DNA of 34,970 bases from Tissierellia bacterium (GTDB lineage: Bacteria > Bacillota > Clostridia > Peptostreptococcales > Acidaminobacteraceae). Positions 1-30,466 of this stretch are shown one piece after another. The notes under the pieces are model-generated. The model saw nothing but the letters and a program-made list of their open reading frames with translations. It had not been told where the DNA came from and searched no databases. Where the stretch lies: positions 1-34,970 of the forward strand of contig DUPT01000028.1 in NCBI GenBank assembly GCA_012838225.1. The letters run 5' to 3'. The position numbers and the translations under genes were made by a program. Numbering within the stretch: the stretch's first letter is position 1; each line of letters opens with the position of its first letter.

Positions 1-518
1 CAAGACTCCACGAGCTTCAGCAAAAGCTCTTGGCCGATCCGACAGTCGATGAGAGAGCGCATGCGCTGCATATGGTGGAGCTGCTTCACAGCCTGTGGAG
101 CGATCAGGATCCGGTCGTCATCGTCTACTGGTCGCCGCCGTATTATCCTCACATCTATGTCAAGGATGAGACGGACAAGGAGAAAAATCTGCTCCGGGCG
201 GTCGAAGAGGCCTCTCAGGCGACCGAGAGCCGCTATACGATCCAGATGAGGAAGTTCTATCCCTATATCTCGGATCTAAGCTATGGCGCAGCGCCCAGAG
301 AGCCGGGGGCGATCGAGAGCCTCCGCGAGAATATGCCGGGCTTTGGTGTCAGCTATCAGCTGCCGCTTGAGGAGATGCGACAGCTCGATCTACCGGTCGT
401 CAATATCGGTCCCTTCGGTAAAGGGGCGCATAAGTTCACGGAACGAGTCCAGATCGATTATTCGTATCACGTCGCTCCGAAGCTGGTCTATCGGGTGATC
501 CAAAATCTCCTAAGATAA
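1..518 (+). CDS. RocB-like M20 peptidase (C-terminal part, cut by window edge)
   Basis: The reading frame is open from the left edge (first full codon at base 3), so this is the last ~172 residues of a longer protein. A TTG at 30 opens the longest complete frame, but the same frame continues upstream without a stop, so it is not the start. The tail contains the block NIGPFGKGAHKFTERV, which I recognise from the RocB (arginine utilisation) branch of M20 zinc peptidases; the His and Glu there fit the C-terminal metal-site region of that family. The metal-binding N-terminal half lies outside the window. RocB-type proteins are associated with arginine/ornithine catabolism, but the exact substrate is unknown. 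The gene ends just before a hairpin shared with the convergent M20 gene. Family call fairly secure, substrate not. Confidence 0.75.
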   Translation, partial: RLHELQQKLLADPTVDERAHALHMVELLHSLWSDQDPVVIVYWSPPYYPHIYVKDETDKEKNLLRAVEEASQATESRYTIQMRKFYPYISDLSYGAAPREPGAIESLRENMPGFGVSYQLPLEEMRQLDLPVVNIGPFGKGAHKFTERVQIDYSYHVAPKLVYRVIQNLLR

Positions 519-549
519 GCCATCAGCTAATAAAAAACAGAAGAAACAA

Positions 550-579
550 CAGCCGGCTGCCCTTTTTGGCAGCCGGTTG
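550..579. terminator. Bidirectional hairpin terminator between convergent M20 genes
   Basis: A 12-bp stem (550-561 with 568-579, one G-T pair) has a 6-base loop. Read on the minus strand it is followed by a T-rich stretch (bases 549 down to ~532), so it mainly terminates the minus-strand M20 gene. On the plus strand it sits 31 bases after the RocB-like stop. Confidence 0.8.
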
Positions 580-581
580 CT

Positions 582-1778
582 TTAGGTCAAACTGGTCGCT
601 AGGAAGTCGATCAACAGCTCGATCAGTTGGTAGTAGCTCGTCAACTCGACATACTCATCGGGTTGATGGATGGCTCCGCCGCTGGCACCCACCAGGACCG
701 TCGGGATGGCGTAGAGGCCGCCGATCAGGTTGAAGTCACCGATGGCCTTGGAGGTGGTTCGGATGGGCTCCTTAGCATAGACCCGGCGACAAACCTCGAT
801 CAAGCGCTTGATATCCACATTTGTCTCATCATAGTAGTAGGGGGCAAAGCCGCCATCAAAGCCCTCGGCGGGTGAGGGGCGAAACCGGATTTTGGCTTGG
901 GAGCGAAGAGCCAAGTCGGTTAGGACCGATTCGACTTCTCGCCGGATGGTCTCGATCGTTTCCCCGGGCACGACATGTCGAAATACCTCGACCCTAGCTT
1001 CATCGGGCACACTGGCGGCACCGCTGCCGGCATGGACGGAAATGACGCAGCTGGCGGCCTTTCCGAGGACCGGATGATCCAACGTCTCGATCTGATTTAG
1101 GGCCGGGATCAATCGGGCGGCGTCCTCGGCCGCACTGATGCCAAGCTCCGGTGTGGCGGCGTGGGCACTTTTACCCTTTAAGTGAACGGTGTAGTTATAG
1201 CCGCCCTTTGAGCCTAAGGCAATGGCCGGATGAGTCGTCTCACCGACCTGGCTGGCCGGCTCTGTCAGGATGGCAAAATCAGGCTTGACTGTCAGGCTAT
1301 CCTTTAGGAAATGAGTTGTTCCCAGGCCATAGGGGCCCTCCTCGACGGAAGCGAAGTGATAGATGATCCGGCCCCTAAAGTTGGCATGGGCCTGTTTGAA
1401 ATGACTCAAAGCCATCAAGATGGCCGCACAACCGGCCTTCATATCGAGCGCACCCGTGCCATAGAGGCGATCGCCCTCCTTGGTCGCTTGGAGCGGCTCA
1501 CGCGTCCAACCGGCCACCGGATTGACGGTGTCGAGATGGCCACCCAGGTAGAGGGTCGGGCCGGGCAGTCCGCCGACGATCTCACCGTAGAGGTTTAGTC
1601 CGTGAAAATCAAGCGGCTCAAAATAGTACAACTGAAGCTCAGCCGGCAGTCCCAGCTCCTTTGCTCGCTGCTTCGTACGGTGCATGATCGGCGCCTCATG
1701 GAAATAGGCGCTTGGGATCTCGATCAATTCGATCAATAATTCAAGTGCTTTGGTTTTATCGACAACGCTTCGTCTCAT
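582..1778 (-). CDS. M20 family metallopeptidase (ArgE/DapE/carboxypeptidase-like)
   Basis: A 398-residue cytosolic zinc hydrolase of the M20 family, which cleaves amide bonds in N-acyl amino acids or small peptides. Metal and catalytic motifs are in order: GGHLDT (His81, Asp83), GALDMKAG (Asp112, the bridging position), EEGPYG (Glu146/147) and HQPDEY near residue 370. The central segment with GKSAHA matches the dimerisation insert of the family. A TTG at 1781 lies only three bases from the AGAGG site; the ATG at 1778 has correct spacing and was chosen. It has its own promoter facing away from the asnS T-box and converges on the RocB-like gene. Substrate (acetylornithine, succinyl-diaminopimelate, dipeptide) cannot be told from sequence; the adjacent second M20 gene suggests peptide or arginine catabolism. 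Confidence 0.85.
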   Translation of the reverse strand: MRRSVVDKTKALELLIELIEIPSAYFHEAPIMHRTKQRAKELGLPAELQLYYFEPLDFHGLNLYGEIVGGLPGPTLYLGGHLDTVNPVAGWTREPLQATKEGDRLYGTGALDMKAGCAAILMALSHFKQAHANFRGRIIYHFASVEEGPYGLGTTHFLKDSLTVKPDFAILTEPASQVGETTHPAIALGSKGGYNYTVHLKGKSAHAATPELGISAAEDAARLIPALNQIETLDHPVLGKAASCVISVHAGSGAASVPDEARVEVFRHVVPGETIETIRREVESVLTDLALRSQAKIRFRPSPAEGFDGGFAPYYYDETNVDIKRLIEVCRRVYAKEPIRTTSKAIGDFNLIGGLYAIPTVLVGASGGAIHQPDEYVELTSYYQLIELLIDFLATSLT

Positions 1779-1808
1779 CAAAAGCCTCTTTCTTCGGGAA
1801 TCTCCTAC

Positions 1809-1837
1809 AGTTTATACCGTACGCGCTTTGGAGTCAA
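1809..1837 (-). promoter_or_regulatory. Promoter for the M20 peptidase
   Basis: On the minus strand a -35 TTGACT (1832-1837) is followed after 17 bases by TAAACT (1809-1814). An overlapping TATAAA (1811-1816) would give 15-base spacing. Either serves the M20 gene starting at 1778. Confidence 0.5.
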
Positions 1838-1928
1838 AAAAAAGGAGTCCGGCCTGATTATCGTCTGAGACAAGGTTTTTTATCGGTCGGTTTTTGTGTG
1901 AAAGAATTGTCCAAAACCCGGTTTTTGA

Positions 1929-1957
1929 TTGATTAATCAAGGGGGTTGGTCTATACT
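1929..1957 (+). promoter_or_regulatory. Sigma-A promoter of the asnS T-box operon
   Basis: -35 TTGATT (1929-1934), 17-base spacer, -10 TATACT (1952-1957), predicting a transcript start near 1964, just before T-box stem I. The -35 lies inside a perfect 12-bp palindrome, TTGATTAATCAA (1929-1940). The 395-base gap between the M20 gene and asnS holds only the M20 promoter, this promoter and the T-box. Confidence 0.7.
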
Positions 1958-1965
1958 AAAACCAA

Positions 1966-2160
1966 AGGTAGTGATTGGACGAGTACGTCATGACAAGATG
2001 CCAAAGCGAGCCCGGGACAGTGTGAGCCGGGTGGCTGGGTCTGACCGAAAAACACCCATGAACCGGACCGATGTCCCGGCTAATGACCGTTAAAGCATCC
2101 AGAGACTTAATGAGGGTGGCACCACGAAGGATTCGTCCCTCCGCTTAGGTCCTTTTTTTA
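1966..2160 (+). ncRNA. T-box leader (asparagine-type)
   Basis: A tRNA-sensing leader that reads through when uncharged cognate tRNA binds. The T-box sequence AGGGTGGCACCACG is at 2113-2126. Stem I carries the S-turn-like AGTA (about 1981-1984), an AG-bulge-like AGCGAG and a distal-loop GGGTGGCTG resembling the family consensus. The terminator pairs GAGGG (2112-2116) with CCCTC (2137-2141), with an inner ACGAA/TTCGT stem, then a T-run at 2153-2159. The specifier should be AAC for asparagine; the AAC at 2061-2063, just before the sequence that can close the stem I base, is my best candidate, with a second AAC at 2051-2053. The amino acid is inferred mainly from the downstream asnS. Confidence 0.9.
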
Positions 2161-2173
2161 TTAGGAGGTCCCT

Positions 2174-3559
2174 GTGAAACGCACTGAAATCAAACAATTA
2201 CTCACCCAACCCTATACCGAAGGATCGGTCTATGTGGCCGGTTGGATCCGGACGGCTCGTCAATCGAGCAAGGTCGGCTTTATCGAACTCAATGACGGCT
2301 CGCAATTTGGCAATCTCCAAATCGTTTATGATAAGGACCTTGCCAATTTTAACGAAATCAATAAACTCGGTCTGTCGGCCGCCATCGAGGTCTGGGGCGA
2401 GGTGGTTTTGACGCCTGAGATGAAGCAGCCTTTGGAGATCAGGGCGACCAAGATCGAGGTGATGGGGGATTCGGCAAAGGACTATCCGCTCCAAAAGAAG
2501 CGCCATTCGTTGGAATATCTTCGGACACAGCTGACGCTTCGACCCCGGACCAATACCTTCATGGCGGTATTTCGGGTTCGTTCGGTCTTGTCGATGGCCA
2601 TCCATCAGTTCTTTCAGGACCGTGGCTTCGTCTATGTCCACACCCCGATCCTGACCTCAGCCGATGCCGAGGGAGCGGGGGAGATGTTCCAGGTGACATC
2701 GCTCGATCTAAACGATCTGCCAATGACCGAGGATGGCCGGGTCGATTATTCCAAGGAGCTCTTTGGTAAGAAGATGGGTCTCACTGTCAGCGGACAGCTG
2801 GCCGTCGAGCCGTTTGCTTTGAGCTTTTCAAAGGTCTATACCTTCGGGCCGACCTTTCGGGCGGAAAACTCCAATACCGTCCGCCACGCCAATGAATTCT
2901 GGATGATCGAACCCGAGATCAGCTTCTGTGATCTAGATTGTATGATGGATATCATCGAAGAGATGGTCAAATACCTGATCGACTATGTCCTCGAGCAGGC
3001 GCCTCAGGAGATGCAGTTCTTCAATGATCGGATCGACAACAGCCTGCTGGAGCGGCTCGAGGTGGTCCGGCAAAGCCGGTTCGCCCGGATCAGCTATACC
3101 GAGGCGATCGAGCTATTGCAGGCCAGCGGTAAAAGTTTTGAGTTTAAGCCGGTCTGGGGCCAAGAGATCCAGACCGAGCATGAGAAATACCTGGCCGGCG
3201 AATACTTCAAACAACCCGTATTCGTGACCGACTATCCGACCGATGCCAAGGCCTTCTATATGAAGCTATCCGACGACGGCAAGACCGTTCGGGCGTGTGA
3301 TCTGTTGGTGCCGGCCATCGGTGAGATCGTCGGCGGCTCACAGCGGGAAGATGATTTCGAGCGCCTGAAGGCTGAGATGGAGCGCCGCGGCATGCCGACC
3401 AAGGAATACCAGTGGTATCTCGATCTGCGCCGCTATGGCAGCGCCGTTCACTCGGGCTTTGGTCTGGGCTTCGATCGGATCATCCAATACCTGACGGGCA
3501 TCGCCAATATCCGCGACGTCCAGGCGTATCCGCGGACGCCGCATAACGCCGAACACTAA
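2174..3559 (+). CDS. asnS: Asparagine--tRNA ligase
   Basis: A 461-residue class II synthetase that charges tRNA-Asn. Residues ~1-105 form the OB-fold anticodon-binding domain and ~125-461 the catalytic domain. Motif 2 holds FRAENSNTVRHANEFW (228-243) and motif 3 GFGLGFDR (428-435), with SGQLAVEPFA (206-215) typical of AsnRS rather than AspRS. The start is GTG at 2174, five bases after AGGAGG. The preceding T-box controls it. Length is normal for bacterial AsnRS. No convincing terminator separates it from the next gene 58 bases on. Confidence 0.97.
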   Translation: MKRTEIKQLLTQPYTEGSVYVAGWIRTARQSSKVGFIELNDGSQFGNLQIVYDKDLANFNEINKLGLSAAIEVWGEVVLTPEMKQPLEIRATKIEVMGDSAKDYPLQKKRHSLEYLRTQLTLRPRTNTFMAVFRVRSVLSMAIHQFFQDRGFVYVHTPILTSADAEGAGEMFQVTSLDLNDLPMTEDGRVDYSKELFGKKMGLTVSGQLAVEPFALSFSKVYTFGPTFRAENSNTVRHANEFWMIEPEISFCDLDCMMDIIEEMVKYLIDYVLEQAPQEMQFFNDRIDNSLLERLEVVRQSRFARISYTEAIELLQASGKSFEFKPVWGQEIQTEHEKYLAGEYFKQPVFVTDYPTDAKAFYMKLSDDGKTVRACDLLVPAIGEIVGGSQREDDFERLKAEMERRGMPTKEYQWYLDLRRYGSAVHSGFGLGFDRIIQYLTGIANIRDVQAYPRTPHNAEH

Positions 3560-26176: not shown

Positions 26177-26794
26177 TTGAATTACGAAAAATACCTCTAT
26201 ATCGACTATGAGAATGTCCAAGACGTCCAGACTGATGCCATCAGTCAGGATATGAAGGTCATGATCGTAGTGGGGGTCAATCAATCGAAGGTCCCGCTGC
26301 AACTTGTCCAACAGACCCAACCCTTTGGCGAAGGCGTCCAATGGGTCCAGGTCGGTGGACAGGGCCGAGATGCCCTCGACTTCTTTATTGCCTACTATAT
26401 CGGTCGTGATGTCTGCTTGCGTCCCGACAAGGAATATCTCATCTATTCCAAGGACGCCGGCTATGACCCGCTGATCGATCATTTGACCAAGGAACAGATC
26501 AAGATCAAGCGGATCGTCAGCTTCCAGGAGCTGATGCCTCGGATTGAGAGCGTGATCGATTGGTCACTGCTCGATAAGACCATCCAAAACCTGACGAAGG
26601 TAGCGTCGAATAAACGGCCGAAGAAGCGTCATACGCTGACCAAGCATGTGGCGGCCCTGTTTCCCAGCAAACCGATCGAGGAGATCGAGGGACTGATCGA
26701 GCAGTTGTTTATCGACAAGCATGTCTATGAACAGAGCGGTCTGGTACGCTATGATCTGGAGAAAAAGCCAGTCAACGGCAAAAAGAAAAAATAG
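26177..26794 (+). CDS. PIN-like (NYN/PIN fold) protein with C-terminal basic domain
   Basis: A 205-residue protein with a likely nuclease fold. Acidic positions typical of PIN/NYN RNases are seen in YIDYENVQ (Asp10, Asn13), GRDALDFFIAYYIGR (about 74-88) and YSKDAGYDPLIDHL (about 106-119). Residues ~145-195 form a second small domain that may be winged-helix-like, and the end is a Lys-rich tail (KKPVNGKKKK). It starts at TTG (26177), six bases after GGAGA; no nearby ATG fits. It follows the HtrA gene by 34 bases and precedes the tRNA gene. RNA cleavage is inferred from fold-like motifs only; no antitoxin partner is next to it. Confidence 0.75.
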   Translation: MNYEKYLYIDYENVQDVQTDAISQDMKVMIVVGVNQSKVPLQLVQQTQPFGEGVQWVQVGGQGRDALDFFIAYYIGRDVCLRPDKEYLIYSKDAGYDPLIDHLTKEQIKIKRIVSFQELMPRIESVIDWSLLDKTIQNLTKVASNKRPKKRHTLTKHVAALFPSKPIEEIEGLIEQLFIDKHVYEQSGLVRYDLEKKPVNGKKKK

Positions 26795-26870: not shown

Positions 26871-26956
26871 GCCGGCGTGATGGAATGGCAGACATGATGG
26901 ACTCAAAATCCATTGGTGGCAACACCGTATCGGTTCAAATCCGATCGCCGGTACCA
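26871..26956 (+). tRNA. tRNA-Leu (anticodon CAA)
   Basis: An 86-base class II tRNA with encoded CCA (26954-26956). The acceptor stem GCCGGCG pairs with CGCCGGT, its first pair being a G-T wobble; the anticodon stem ATGGA/TCCAT closes loop CTCAAAA, giving anticodon CAA for codon UUG. The long variable arm GGTG-GCAA-CACC and the T arm ATCGG-TTCAAAT-CCGAT confirm a leucine tRNA. It has its own promoter and terminator. Confidence 0.95.
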
Positions 26957-26960
26957 CTTG

Positions 26961-26987
26961 AAAAGGGCATGAAGATGTCCTTTTTTT
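26961..26987 (+). terminator. Terminator of the tRNA-Leu gene
   Basis: AAAAGGGCA (26961-26969) pairs with TGTCCTTTT (26976-26984, one G-T), with a 6-base loop and a T-run to 26987. It ends six bases before the stop of the convergent DUF3841 gene. Confidence 0.85.
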
Positions 26988-26992
26988 ATTGC

Positions 26993-27556
26993 CTAAAGCC
27001 AGTCTTTTTTAAGTCGCCACAATCCGGCTTGGATCCCCCGGACACCGGAGTGGTCACCGGCCTTGAGGGCGTCATTATGCCGAAACAGCCGCTGCCAGCT
27101 GTCCTCGATCTCACGCTTCAGGTCCGGATAGAAAGAGCCGGTCATGATATCGCTCGAGTGGCGGATGCCGTAGTCTTTGATCTTTTGGCGAAAGCGAATC
27201 TCTTCGGCTTCGGTTTCACCCAGGTATTCCAGTCGCATCAGCTTGACCCAGTCGTAGAGGTCAAACAACACGACCTCCTCCAGCGGGACCTCGAGGATGA
27301 GTAGCGACGAGTCACCGCCGGCTTCGACGCTGTAGCGATCGACAAACCCCCAGTAGGGATACTCGGCTGAGGCGGGCTTTTTAACATAGCGGGGGAGTTG
27401 TCTCACAAACCAGCCATAGACCGTTTGGAAGATGATGGCGCTCTCTTGATATTTTGCCTTGACGAAGCGTTCTTTTGAATAGATTTCGCCCTCACGCCTC
27501 AGGCGATCACTCACCGCAAGACTCTGGGCGGAGTAGAGTGTTATGGTTTTAGTCAC
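26993..27556 (-). CDS. DUF3841-like protein, second copy
   Basis: A 187-residue protein of unknown function, paralogous in layout to its upstream neighbour: a short beta-rich start (TITLYSAQS), a middle Tyr/Trp-rich stretch with a PYWGF block matching PIWL of the neighbour, a leucine-rich strand region (SSLLILEVPLEEVVLFD), and a C-terminal FYPDLKREIEDSWQRLF block aligned with FYPELKQKIIDSWRRLF of the first copy. The start is GTG 27556, six bases after AGGAGG; the open frame reaches 27643 but has no better start. It overlaps the first copy by eight bases. No signal peptide or enzyme motif is seen. Confidence 0.72.
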   Translation of the reverse strand: MTKTITLYSAQSLAVSDRLRREGEIYSKERFVKAKYQESAIIFQTVYGWFVRQLPRYVKKPASAEYPYWGFVDRYSVEAGGDSSLLILEVPLEEVVLFDLYDWVKLMRLEYLGETEAEEIRFRQKIKDYGIRHSSDIMTGSFYPDLKREIEDSWQRLFRHNDALKAGDHSGVRGIQAGLWRLKKDWL

Positions 27557-28127
27557 AAGCGACCTCCTGATCGTCTTTAGAACGAATGATGCGCCGGATC
27601 CAGTCTCGGTCGATCTCCCAGATGAGGCCGTAGTAGGCGTCACCTCCGAGGCTGATGGTGGGGTCGAATAAGCGGCGCCAGCTGTCGATGATCTTCTGTT
27701 TGAGCTCGGGGTAGAACCGGCTCATCACGATCTTGGCATCGCTTAGGCCGTAGCGATCGATCAGGTCGCGGTGGCGTCTCTCATCCGCCTCATCGAGCGG
27801 AATATACGAGAAGTTTAGGATGGCGCCCCATTTGTTGATATTGATCGGAGTGATGAGCTCGGCATCGATGACCAGCTCCAGGATGGGGTGGGTGGGTGAT
27901 GGGATCATGGTGGCCGCTTCAGTGGGTGATAGCCAGATGGGATAATCGGCATCCTTTGGCTTTTTATCAGCCGGCACCTGTTCTCTGAGCCAGTCATAGG
28001 CGATCAATACCAGGTCGTGGTGATCGATATCCTTCAAGATCCGCTGTCTGGTCGGCACGTAGCGGCCGGTCTGTTCGAGGTCTTCTATAACACTGATATG
28101 CTGTCTGGTCCAAACCATGACGTCCAT
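27549..28127 (-). CDS. DUF3841 domain protein, first copy
   Basis: A 192-residue cytosolic protein. The opening VWTRQHISVIEDLEQTG, the YDWLREQV segment, PIWL, the strand pair HPILELVIDAELI, the NKWGAILNFSYIPL block and the C-terminal IIDSWRRLFD match my memory of DUF3841 proteins, whose function is unknown. ATG 28127 is six bases after AAAGGAG. It lies 80 bases downstream of the XRE regulator on the same strand and overlaps the second copy, so the two are probably co-translated. A weak TTGCTT/TAAAAA promoter may precede it; otherwise it depends on read-through from the regulator gene. Confidence 0.75.
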   Translation of the reverse strand: MDVMVWTRQHISVIEDLEQTGRYVPTRQRILKDIDHHDLVLIAYDWLREQVPADKKPKDADYPIWLSPTEAATMIPSPTHPILELVIDAELITPININKWGAILNFSYIPLDEADERRHRDLIDRYGLSDAKIVMSRFYPELKQKIIDSWRRLFDPTISLGGDAYYGLIWEIDRDWIRRIIRSKDDQEVACD

Positions 28128-28183
28128 CGCTGGCTCCTTTCTTCGATCTTTTTTTACCGCGGTCTGATCGGCTTAAGCAAACA

Positions 28184-28203
28184 GAGCACCACTTCGGGTG
28201 CTC
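28184..28203 (-). terminator. Hairpin after the XRE regulator
   Basis: A 7-bp stem GAGCACC/GGTGCTC (28184-28190 with 28197-28203), starting five bases after the regulator stop on the minus strand, followed by a weak T-containing stretch. It could be a partial terminator that lets some transcripts reach the DUF3841 pair. Confidence 0.55.
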
Positions 28204-28207
28204 CGGA

Positions 28208-28531
28208 TCATTTGGTCGTCTTTAAAGAGAAGAACTGATCGAGTTGTCGGCTGATGAGATGGCGTTCTTTGGCCGTCAGTCGGCGAGGAACCTCGAAGCA
28301 TTCCTTGATGGACGATTCATCCGCTTCGTCCTCATCGGTCCAAAACATCAGGTATGCTGGAGTCGTTTCCAGGATCTTGGCGATCTGGATCAGCCGCCCG
28401 ACCGGCATCTTTTCGATGGCACCGCTTTCATAGCGATAGATGGTCGATTTGGCGACGCCTAAGCGGCGGGCCATATCCGGCGCGCTGACACCGCGTTCGA
28501 TTCGTTTTTGGACTATTCTGGATGCATCCAT
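28208..28531 (-). CDS. XRE-family (CI-like) transcriptional regulator
   Basis: A 107-residue DNA-binding protein. The helix-turn-helix lies at about residues 16-40 (DMARRLGVAKSTIYRYESG), followed by the XRE-typical PVGRLIQIAKILETTPAYLM; the last ~40 residues are acidic then basic and carry no protease or metal-binding motif, so it lacks the LexA-like cleavage domain of large phage repressors. ATG 28531 follows AGGTGAG. It is divergent from a small Cro-like gene and precedes the two DUF3841 genes, so it probably represses this islet, itself included. Confidence 0.9.
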   Translation of the reverse strand: MDASRIVQKRIERGVSAPDMARRLGVAKSTIYRYESGAIEKMPVGRLIQIAKILETTPAYLMFWTDEDEADESSIKECFEVPRRLTAKERHLISRQLDQFFSLKTTK

Positions 28532-28548
28532 ATCTCACCTCGAGCTAC

Positions 28549-28577
28549 AGTATACACTTTTTGTAGCAATTGTGCAA
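28549..28577 (-). promoter_or_regulatory. Promoter of the XRE regulator gene
   Basis: On the minus strand: -35 TTGCAC (28572-28577), 17-base spacer, -10 TATACT (28549-28554), 18 bases before the start codon. A CAATTG palindrome (28568-28573) overlaps the -35 end. Confidence 0.7.
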
Positions 28578-28594
28578 CTTCTTTGATGAATAAC

Positions 28595-28622
28595 TTGACA
28601 TTATTTAATAATGGTGGACAAT
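28595..28622 (+). promoter_or_regulatory. Promoter and putative operator of the Cro-like gene
   Basis: -35 TTGACA (28595-28600, perfect), 16-base spacer, -10 GACAAT (28617-28622). The spacer contains a palindrome with perfect 7-base arms, CATTATT-T-AATAATG (28599-28613), a likely binding site for one of the two flanking regulators. Confidence 0.65.
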
Positions 28623-28653
28623 AACAGTAGCATAAATGCAACCGGGAGGCCTT

Positions 28654-28857
28654 ATGAATATCCTTAAGATCAGAGGACTTATGGCCGAGCAGATGATCAC
28701 CCAGCGAGCCATGGCGGAAATGCTCGGTATCAGTTTGTCGTCTTTTCATCGTAAACTAAAATCAGGCGGGAATCGATTCACGCTCGAAGAGCTCGTCAAA
28801 ATGAAGGAAGCGCTTCATCTGTCCGACGAGGAAGCGTCCGAGATTTTCTTCGACTAA
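28654..28857 (+). CDS. Small Cro-like HTH protein (DUF739-like)
   Basis: A 67-residue helix-turn-helix protein. The pattern MITQRAMAEMLGISLSSFHRKL then FTLEELVKMKEALHLSDEEASEIFF closely follows DUF739-type phage regulators, which often sit opposite a CI-type repressor. An upstream in-frame ATG at 28636 lacks a ribosome site; ATG 28654 has GGGAGG four bases away and was chosen. It is transcribed alone from a TTGACA promoter and ends at a strong terminator, so its role is most likely regulatory within the islet rather than leading an operon. Confidence 0.82.
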   Translation: MNILKIRGLMAEQMITQRAMAEMLGISLSSFHRKLKSGGNRFTLEELVKMKEALHLSDEEASEIFFD

Positions 28858-28880
28858 CCGACCTTCGAACTACTGTTAGG

Positions 28881-28914
28881 GGGACACTATGCCTTGGAGG
28901 CGGTGTTCCTTTTT
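28881..28914 (+). terminator. Terminator of the Cro-like gene
   Basis: GGGACACT (28881-28888) pairs with GGTGTTCC (28902-28909), with an inner GCCT/AGGC stem, followed by five T (28910-28914). Confidence 0.8.
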
Positions 28915-28949
28915 GTTCGAGAGTCTGTTTTTAGGTAGGCGGTTTCGGG

Positions 28950-28955
28950 CATAAT
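28950..28955 (+). promoter_or_regulatory. Candidate -10 box for the ykvA-like gene
   Basis: CATAAT lies 28 bases before the ATG; the -35 region has only a T-rich stretch (about 28927-28932). Confidence 0.35.
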
Positions 28956-28982
28956 CGTTTTAGACAGAACCGGGAGGAAGAC

Positions 28983-29450
28983 ATGGATAAACAGACAATG
29001 AAGCAGGCCGCCCTCAAGCAGCTAACACGTCACAGCCGGGAAGCAAAGAAGCTTCTCAAGAGCCCTGTCAAAGCGTATCGTCTGCTGAGTCGGGCCAGGC
29101 AAAAGAGCGCCAAGATCGATATCGGGTCGTTTCTGGAGCTGCGAGCTGATTTTCTGGTCATGATCGAGCTGGCCAAGGCCTATATCAAACGAGACTATCG
29201 GCAGGTGCCGGTCCGAACGATCCTGGCGGTCTTGGGATCAGCCCTCTATGTCCTCAATCCGATCGATATCATTCCAGATGTGATCCCGGTCATCGGCTAT
29301 CTCGATGATGCCTTTGTCATCGGCTTTGTCCTCAAGCAGATCCGGCATGACCTGGCGGCCTTCAAGGACTGGCAGGCCGGAGCCGAGGCCCCCTACTATG
29401 AAGAAGAGGCAGACTGGGACGAACTCGATGATGTCTATGTTGAGCCTTAA
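28983..29450 (+). CDS. YkvA family (DUF1232) protein
   Basis: A 155-residue protein with a basic N-terminal half and the DUF1232 core at about residues 75-115: LYVLNPIDIIPDVIPVIGYLDDA, a short membrane-associated helix pair with conserved NPxDxIPD. The C-terminus is strongly acidic (EEEADWDELDD). The family function is unknown. ATG 28983 is five bases after GGGAGGA. It forms a single-gene unit outside the DUF3841 islet, ending at a hairpin shared with the convergent metallophosphoesterase gene. Confidence 0.88.
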   Translation: MDKQTMKQAALKQLTRHSREAKKLLKSPVKAYRLLSRARQKSAKIDIGSFLELRADFLVMIELAKAYIKRDYRQVPVRTILAVLGSALYVLNPIDIIPDVIPVIGYLDDAFVIGFVLKQIRHDLAAFKDWQAGAEAPYYEEEADWDELDDVYVEP

Positions 29451-29498
29451 GATCGACTGAGGTCTAGTAGTTTGAATGACAACTGAAAGCTTAGATTA

Positions 29499-29545
29499 AA
29501 ACGCTTCTCCCAGAGGCCGAGGTCACCGGCTAAGGAGAAGCGTTT
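29499..29545. terminator. Hairpin between ykvA-like and metallophosphoesterase genes
   Basis: A perfect 12-bp stem AAACGCTTCTCC/GGAGAAGCGTTT (29499-29510 with 29534-29545) with a 23-base loop that can fold further. Probably a bidirectional terminator. Confidence 0.7.
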
Positions 29546-29566
29546 AGGGTTTGGTTTTGTCGTTGG

Positions 29567-30466
29567 CTACCGCTGGGTGTACATATACTTACTGACGGCG
29601 ATCGGTCCGTCGAGGACGCGCCGATCGACCTGAAGCAGCCCCTTCGGATTGGGCCAGATGCGCCATTCCACTAAGGAGATGGTGCCACCGACGATCTCGA
29701 TCGCGGTGATGACCCTTGGGCGAACGGCACTGCCGGCATTGAAATAGGGCAGCTCATTCGGCTGAGAAAACTTCGGTCGATGGGTGTGACCGACCACCAT
29801 GAACTGATCATTGCGCTCGATCCAGCGGCGATACTGCCGCTCGATCTTATGACGTTTGATGATGCTCTTGGCCGGTGAGGCCGGGTTTCGAAAGCCGATG
29901 ATGTGAAGATACTTCCAGACGAAACGCATCATAAAATGAGCGAACCGCCAAAAGGTGTCATTCATGGCATCGCCTTGATGACCGTGGACGATAAAGATAT
30001 CCTTGCCGAAGTCTTCATAGCGCAGCCGAACACTCTCATGCACCTCGATCCCGGGCATGAACTCGACCCATTGGTCGGTATAGGGATCATGGGCTTTATC
30101 AAAGGTCCGTCGGACGATCTGAGGATACTTCAGCTGGATATTGTGATTGCCGTAGATGATATGGAGCCGGCCCTTTTCATGAAACTTCTGATAGACGCTG
30201 AAGACATCCTGGTGGGCATAGTAGATATACTCAAATTTTGAGTGTTCCCACAGCTCATCGCCGTCGCCGTTTTCGATCAGCTCAAACCCGTTTTCATAAT
30301 AGTGATTGGCGGCGTGCAAAAAGATATTCTGATTGGGCGCAAATTCATCAGAAAACGAGTTGTCCCCTCGGTGCATATCGCTCATGATGACGAAGCGAGA
30401 GGCATCGTTGAAGGGGATCACTTTGGCGTTGTCGTAGGCCTGACGGAGCTTCTTGAATGTAAACAC
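29567..30466 (-). CDS. Calcineurin-like metallophosphoesterase
   Basis: A 299-residue phosphoesterase with the full two-metal set: SDMHRGD (Asp30, His32), NGDGDELWE (66-74), GNHN (106-109), HGHQGD (about 160-165) and GHTHRP (about 227-232). The spacing and GDGDELWE resemble the LpxH/UDP-diacylglucosamine pyrophosphatase branch, though a Gram-positive host would have no lipid A, so the substrate is open. GTG 30466 follows a weak ACAGG site and lies three bases after the glgP stop, implying coupled translation with glycogen phosphorylase. It has no signal peptide. Confidence 0.88.
   Translation of the reverse strand: MFTFKKLRQAYDNAKVIPFNDASRFVIMSDMHRGDNSFSDEFAPNQNIFLHAANHYYENGFELIENGDGDELWEHSKFEYIYYAHQDVFSVYQKFHEKGRLHIIYGNHNIQLKYPQIVRRTFDKAHDPYTDQWVEFMPGIEVHESVRLRYEDFGKDIFIVHGHQGDAMNDTFWRFAHFMMRFVWKYLHIIGFRNPASPAKSIIKRHKIERQYRRWIERNDQFMVVGHTHRPKFSQPNELPYFNAGSAVRPRVITAIEIVGGTISLVEWRIWPNPKGLLQVDRRVLDGPIAVSKYMYTQR

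What the first reader, a model, noticed from the sequence alone, without database searches (positions are those of the whole stretch)
26957..28914. tRNA-adjacent islet: two tandem DUF3841 genes under a CI/Cro-like regulator pair
Between the tRNA-Leu terminator and the ykvA-like gene lie two overlapping paralogues of the uncharacterised DUF3841 family, an XRE regulator on the same strand and a divergent DUF739-like HTH protein. tRNA ends are common integration sites, and a CI/Cro-type switch is typical of phage or mobile islets. No integrase is present, so this may be a small self-contained regulated module (host-defence, toxin-like or stress) or a remnant. The paralogues share a FYP-LK--I-DSW-RLF block, suggesting a heteromeric pair.
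Basis: partly seen in the sequence, partly recalled or inferred. Interest (0 to 1): 0.65.

Follow-up and report, generated by a model that had tools for sequence, protein, structure and literature searches.

The report
Conserved DUF3841 gene pair, ADP-ribosyltransferase-like fold
Two overlapping genes of an uncharacterised bacterial family, kept in the same order across many bacteria, are predicted to fold like enzymes that attach ADP-ribose to other molecules, with one copy looking intact and its partner looking worn down; the nearby tRNA and regulators are mostly incidental neighbours.

Summary
In detail: window 26993-28127(-) holds two intact DUF3841 (PF12952) genes next to an XRE gene, a divergent Cro-like gene and tRNA-Leu(CAA). 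The 'tRNA islet under a CI/Cro switch' reading is largely wrong. XRE/Cro sits beside the same glycogen-phosphorylase cluster in a sister genus that has no DUF3841. Its operators lie only between XRE and Cro, and a terminator-like hairpin separates XRE from the DUF3841 genes. Outside the genus, DUF3841 is not adjacent to these regulators, and the tRNA junction differs in the only other genome of the genus. The real unit is the two-gene pair: B follows A in 32 of 36 A-type loci, 37 of 41 tandem pairs overlap (27 by exactly 25 nt), A and B form separate clades, and their distances correlate (r 0.85). Contexts are unrelated and no phage carries it. AlphaFold models (pLDDT 93 and 95) match ADP-ribosyltransferase-superfamily structures almost exclusively (best Z 7.9), though no sequence profile confirms this. 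Polar residues on the strands expected to carry an ART active site are kept in A and stand-alone copies but lost in B. Best reading: a co-translated heteromer of an ART-like subunit and a degenerate partner. Biochemistry is untested.

The parts
27549..28127 (-). DUF3841 subunit A (192 aa). Keeps W6-T7-R8-Q9, W65-x-S67, N105 and E171. Predicted ART-like fold.
   Evidence: PF12952 E 8.4e-49; AF2 mean pLDDT 93.1; fold hits; column analysis
26993..27556 (-). DUF3841 subunit B (187 aa, GTG start), overlapping A by 8 nt (GTGACTAA) with AGGAGG upstream. Lacks most polar positions that A-type and stand-alone copies keep (here S9, A10, F71, R108, R181).
   Evidence: PF12952 E 7.3e-55; AF2 mean pLDDT 94.6; sequence
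28208..28531 (-). XRE/CI-like HTH regulator (107 aa), resident at the locus in two genera, in one of them without DUF3841
   Evidence: HTH_3 E 1e-8; homologues at the same cluster without DUF3841 in G006, G024, G033
28654..28857 (+). Cro-like HTH protein (67 aa), divergent from XRE
   Evidence: (87% identity to G001)
28563..28578 (+). Operator-like site O1, GTAGCA-N4-TGCAAC, overlapping the -35 of the XRE-side promoter-like site
   Evidence: same six-base half-sites in G001
28627..28642 (+). Operator-like site O2, GTAGCA-N4-TGCAAC, just after the -10 of the Cro-side promoter-like site. Only one further GTWGCANNNNTGCWAC exists in the genome.
28182..28205 (-). Terminator-like hairpin between XRE and DUF3841 A (9 pairs, short T-rich tail); a counterpart lies at the same place in G001
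   Evidence: z -3.1 here, -2.3 in G001
26871..26956 (+). tRNA-Leu(CAA), convergent neighbour, not shown to be an integration site
   Evidence: sister genome differs here

Best explanation
The functional unit is the two-gene DUF3841 pair, not the tRNA/CI-Cro islet. A and B are translated from overlapping reading frames and most likely form a heteromer of two ADP-ribosyltransferase-like (ART-like) domains. A (like the stand-alone DUF3841 proteins) keeps the candidate active-site residues and would bind NAD+ or a related nucleotide and act on an unknown cellular target. B is an old, degenerate paralogue that stabilises, positions or restrains A. The pair is inherited or transferred as one ~1.1-kb unit and lies in unrelated chromosomal contexts. 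In this genus it lies just past the terminator-like hairpin of a resident, apparently self-regulating XRE/Cro switch. Shown: pairing, order, overlap, separate ancestry, context, switch anatomy. Predicted: the ART-like fold. Inferred: heteromer formation, the division of labour, any NAD+ chemistry.
For: Pair: B follows A in 32 of 36 A-type loci, one of the four exceptions being cut by a contig end; 37 of 41 tandem pairs overlap, 27 by exactly 25 nt. B rows form one clade at 100/93 (41 rows: 39 second genes plus 2 classed as solo); A-type rows form another at 100/100. A and B distances correlate, Mantel r 0.85, 0 of 5000 permutations. Fold: of the rows VIA-align listed for A, essentially all are ART-superfamily proteins (Tpt1/KptA Z 7.9, DUF952 protein CC0527 6.9, DarT 6.5, TreTu 6.5, BC2332 6.0, down to RES and ParT), and the B list is likewise ART; the ten best Foldseek PDB hits of A are ART-superfamily; 8 of the 12 best viral hits are proteins of Bacillus phage G, which is reported to encode at least 10 ARTs (PMC9503650). 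Asymmetry: T7 (97% of A, 93% of stand-alone), K/R8, S67 (100%, 86%), N105 (92%, 97%) and E171 (100%, 90%) are kept in A and stand-alone copies and mostly replaced in B, while shared core residues stay in both. Both window genes are intact and evolve under constraint (dN 0.27 and 0.33; dS 2.6 for A, saturated for B).
Against: No Z reaches 8 and no Foldseek PDB E-value is below 0.04, a range where common arrangements can also score. No sequence profile links DUF3841 to an ART: no ART family in Pfam, hhalign probability 0.3% against DUF2441 and DarT (shallow partner profiles), nothing in PDB sequences. The register of the candidate residues against a known active site was not superposed, and E171 lies at the end rather than the start of its strand. 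A complex of A with B could not be modelled. Many DUF3841 genes stand alone, so B is not needed for the family as such.
Confidence: 0.42

Rival explanations
1. Non-catalytic heteromer: both DUF3841 proteins are pseudo-ARTs that sense or bind a nucleotide, RNA or protein partner and regulate something else; no ADP-ribose transfer occurs.
For: No canonical R/H at an unambiguous place in strand 1 and no Glu at the start of strand 5. Another ART-like family with a divergent site has been called a probable pseudoenzyme (PMC7955679).
Against: Near-complete conservation of T/S/N/E positions in A and stand-alone copies, but not in B, points to a selected site in A rather than general decay.
Confidence: 0.27
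2. Toxin-antitoxin module made by the paralogues: A is an ART-like toxin acting on the cell itself and B is its degenerate, neutralising antitoxin.
For: Two small overlapping genes, patchy distribution (28 of 99 relatives; 28 of 293 in the class), unrelated contexts; several fold matches are toxins of toxin-antitoxin systems (DarT, RES, ParT, NatT).
Against: Stand-alone copies with the same A-like residues are common and have no B. Paralogous toxin and antitoxin would be unusual. No PADLOC match.
Confidence: 0.12
3. Xre-RES-like toxin-antitoxin system: the XRE protein upstream is the antitoxin and the ART-like DUF3841 the toxin.
For: XRE directly upstream on the same strand; RES toxins share the predicted fold class (6gw6 Z 3.9); the Pseudomonas putida Xre-RES pair represses its own promoter through a palindromic repeat (PMC12204516).
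Against: XRE is next to DUF3841 only in this genus; the XRE/Cro pair occurs without DUF3841; a terminator-like hairpin separates them; the operators lie between XRE and a divergent Cro gene.
Confidence: 0.05
4. One reading: a phage-like or mobile islet integrated at tRNA-Leu, with the DUF3841 genes as cargo of a CI/Cro switch.
For: tRNA adjacency; a related XRE/Cro pair in G003 lies with an ImmA/IrrE-type peptidase and a SIR2-like gene, as in phage-like regions.
Against: No integrase seen, no repeat of the tRNA end, native base composition, tRNA-Leu followed by other genes in G001, XRE/Cro resident at the glgP locus without DUF3841 in a sister genus, no DUF3841 in phage records or viral contigs.
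Confidence: 0.04

Closest known systems
PF12952 (DUF3841)
   Same: Both genes match the full model with E 1e-48 or better.
   Different: The family has no assigned function. The A/B split, fixed order and conserved overlap are not described in any paper of the searched library (0 papers).
ADP-ribosyltransferase superfamily (KptA/Tpt1, DarT, DUF952, DUF2441, TreTu)
   Same: Predicted fold; candidate polar residues in or next to strands 1, 2 and 5 of A.
   Different: No detectable sequence relation; non-canonical residues; helical insertion with the invariant S149-W150; B degenerate.
Xre-RES / ParST toxin-antitoxin systems
   Same: An XRE gene upstream of a small ART-like gene, operator repeats near the XRE promoter.
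   Different: XRE linkage is genus-specific and has a divergent Cro partner; two paralogous ART-like genes; terminator-like hairpin between.
Phage CI/Cro switches
   Same: Divergent XRE and Cro-like genes with two similar operator-like sites over the promoters.
   Different: Resident beside metallophosphatase-glgP-malQ genes in two genera, with no other phage genes seen.
Enzyme plus catalytically dead paralogue (e.g. AdoMetDC-prozyme, PMC5201418)
   Same: Works-like comparison: an apparently intact and a degenerate paralogue kept together.
   Different: Unrelated proteins; activity of either DUF3841 partner is unknown.

Membership tests
PF12952 DUF3841 | Score above the curated cut-off over the full model | tested here: met
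   185.8 and 166.1 bits against a cut-off of 27, model 1-177 of 178
ADP-ribosyltransferase superfamily | ART-type fold | tested here: inconclusive
   Match lists of both models are almost purely ART, but Z is at most 7.9 (A) and 5.3 (B) and the best PDB Foldseek E is 0.04
ADP-ribosyltransferase superfamily | Sequence-profile relation to a known ART family | tested here: not met
   No ART family in Pfam, NCBIfam or PHROGs; hhalign 0.3% against DUF2441 and DarT; nothing in PDB sequences. So it is described as ART-like, not filed as an ART.
ADP-ribosyltransferase superfamily | Active-site triad (H-H-h, H-Y-[EDQ] or R-S-E) | tested here: inconclusive
   A-type: T7, K/R8, Q9 in strand 1, S67 in strand 2, E171 just after strand 5; register not superposed; B lacks most of them
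ADP-ribosyltransferase superfamily | NAD+ binding and transfer activity | not testable with these tools
   needs biochemistry
tRNA-integrated mobile islet | Integrase in or next to the element | tested here: not met
   none recognised among the window ORFs around the islet
tRNA-integrated mobile islet | Duplicated tRNA 3' end at the far boundary | tested here: not met
   single match with up to 3 mismatches
tRNA-integrated mobile islet | Empty tRNA site in a close relative | tested here: inconclusive
   G001 has tRNA-Leu followed by other genes, with the DUF3841 module on another contig; assembly gaps prevent an exact answer
CI/Cro switch (XRE/Cro only) | Divergent HTH pair with shared operators | tested here: met
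   Two GTAGCA-N4-TGCAAC sites between the genes in both genomes, one other in the whole genome; binding not tested
Xre-RES toxin-antitoxin | XRE gene consistently linked to the toxin gene | tested here: not met
   linked only in this genus
Known anti-phage defence systems (PADLOC) | Match of A or B to a defence model | tested here: not met
   0 matches for A and B

The most novel reading that the evidence does not exclude
DUF3841 A/B is a bacterial ADP-ribosyltransferase made of two paralogous subunits, one with an unusual active site and one obligate degenerate partner, carried as a freely moving two-gene unit in Clostridia-like bacteria and at least one spirochaete, with a role in stress or phage response.
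Probability: 0.18. Interest if true: 0.75.

Novelty: new variant of a known kind. Interest (0 to 1): 0.5.

Why it matters
A family of unknown function found in about a tenth of sampled genomes of this class gets a structural hypothesis, a clear intact/degenerate split between paired paralogues, and named residues to test. It also shows how a tempting islet reading (tRNA + CI/Cro + unknown genes) falls apart once relatives are compared.

Tried and rejected
tRNA integration: searched for tRNA-end repeats and integrases, none. Phage cargo: no DUF3841 in phage records or viral contigs with four queries; plasmids gave four records (three Enterococcus, one Acetoanaerobium). Defence library: no match for A or B. 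PD-(D/E)XK idea from a weak DUF2161 match of B (E 0.006, below cut-off): dropped because the match lists of both models are ART-like, not nuclease-like. Neighbour guilt-by-association: 83 neighbours gave 116 families, none in more than four proteins, so nothing to build on; an NMN transporter upstream of two related lone A-type genes was noted but is a single lineage. Sequence-profile proof of the ART assignment failed. No paper in the library mentions DUF3841. A family-wide alignment was too divergent to seed a locus search, so A-type and B-type alignments were used.

Full report
Observation. A (27549-28127) and B (26993-27556), both on the minus strand, match PF12952 over its full length; they are the only DUF3841 genes in the genome. 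They are 26% identical. The start of B overlaps the stop of A by 8 nt (GTGACTAA), with AGGAGG in front. XRE is 28208-28531(-) and the Cro-like gene is 28654-28857(+). tRNA-Leu(CAA) ends at 26956. Base composition is close to that of the neighbouring genes.

The regulators are residents, not the owners of the DUF3841 genes. In the only other genome of the genus that was available, G001, the order metallophosphatase - ykvA - Cro - XRE - A - B is kept (protein identities 87% Cro, 60% XRE, 63% A, 58% B, 90% metallophosphatase). In the sister genus g6, three genomes without any DUF3841 carry the XRE and Cro genes beside the same glgP/malQ cluster. So the switch does not depend on the DUF3841 pair, and is probably older at this place. 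Between XRE and Cro lie two copies of GTAGCA-N4-TGCAAC, with the same half-sites in both genomes of the genus. The whole genome holds one further copy of the pattern and G001 none. None lies upstream of A. A terminator-like hairpin follows XRE in both genomes. Around the 90 DUF3841 loci examined, a related XRE gene is directly adjacent only in this genus; one distant DUF3841 has one at 1.1 kb.

The tRNA is probably a coincidental neighbour. No integrase and no repeat of the tRNA end were found in the window. In G001 the tRNA-Leu/PIN7/HtrA block is on another contig, followed by a DUF5067 gene and others. Because that assembly is fragmented, an insertion between tRNA and module in G001 cannot be told from a rearrangement.

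The pair is the unit. Thirty-six A-type loci were collected from named genomes, from Clostridia-like bacteria and one Brachyspira; B follows directly in 32 of them. Of 41 tandem pairs, 37 overlap, 27 of them by exactly 25 nt. A tree of 112 domains puts the second genes in one clade (100/93) and the A-type first genes in another (100/100); shuffled labels were never as ordered. A and B distances correlate with r 0.85. Neighbours are unrelated from group to group. DUF3841 is patchy: 28 of 99 relatives and 28 of 293 genomes of the class. It was not found in phage records or viral contigs.

Fold. AlphaFold models of A and B are confident (mean pLDDT 93.1 and 94.6). PDB comparison of A ranks DarT, BC2332 and ADP-ribosylating toxins first. 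VIA-align lists essentially only ART-superfamily proteins for both models (best Z 7.9 for A to Tpt1, 5.3 for B). In the viral library 8 of the 12 best hits are phage G proteins; phage G is reported to encode at least ten ARTs (PMC9503650); whether these hits are those ARTs was not checked. No single score is decisive and no sequence profile confirms the link, so this is fold resemblance, not proven membership. That BC2332 and CC0527 belong to DUF2441 and DUF952 is my own knowledge; a 2021 survey lists both families in the Pfam ART clan and does not mention DUF3841 (PMC7955679). Current clan membership was not checked.

Division of labour. Across A-type and stand-alone copies, T7, K/R8, S67, N105 and E171 are nearly fixed; B has mostly S/T/A, S/A/P, F, C/R/N and Q/C there, while Q9, Y44, P57, W65, W100, Y108, S149-W150, F154 and W170 are kept by nearly all. 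T7, K/R8 and S67 are on predicted strands 1 and 2, and E171 directly follows strand 5. The most distant DUF3841 clade has I at position 8 and W at position 67, so these two are not family-wide. The simplest reading is a working site in A that B has lost. This is inference until superposed on a known site and tested.

Verdict. The ART-like fold assignment is probable (about 0.75 by my estimate); the intact/degenerate heteromer is a fair hypothesis.

Noticed in passing
window 28563-28642 and L186 around 3049 (G000:C59:14548): The XRE/Cro operator pattern occurs once more in the genome, as a perfect six-base inverted repeat (GTTGCATAAATGCAAC) between a 5'-nucleotidase-like gene and a 73-aa ORF: a possible second target of the switch.
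   Followed up: partly
L187 (G003:C119) 214-3148: A related XRE/Cro pair lies with an ImmA/IrrE-type peptidase and a SIR2-like protein, pointing to a phage-like origin of the switch.
   Followed up: partly
L092, L095, L097, L098, L100, directly after the pair: A Mogibacterium-related group carries a third, divergent DUF3841 gene on the opposite strand directly after the A-B pair.
   Followed up: no
L082 and L087: Lone A-type DUF3841 genes of one lineage lie between an NMN transporter gene and a pyridoxamine-oxidase-like gene, a possible link to cofactor metabolism.
   Followed up: partly
window 26177-26794: A PIN7-domain gene precedes the tRNA-Leu; in its family it is found with good similarity only in this genus and two g9 genomes.
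   Followed up: partly
window 26993-30466 versus L044: YkvA/DUF1232, A, B and XRE diverge much faster between the two genomes of the genus (57-64% identity) than Cro (87%) and the metallophosphatase (90%).
   Followed up: partly
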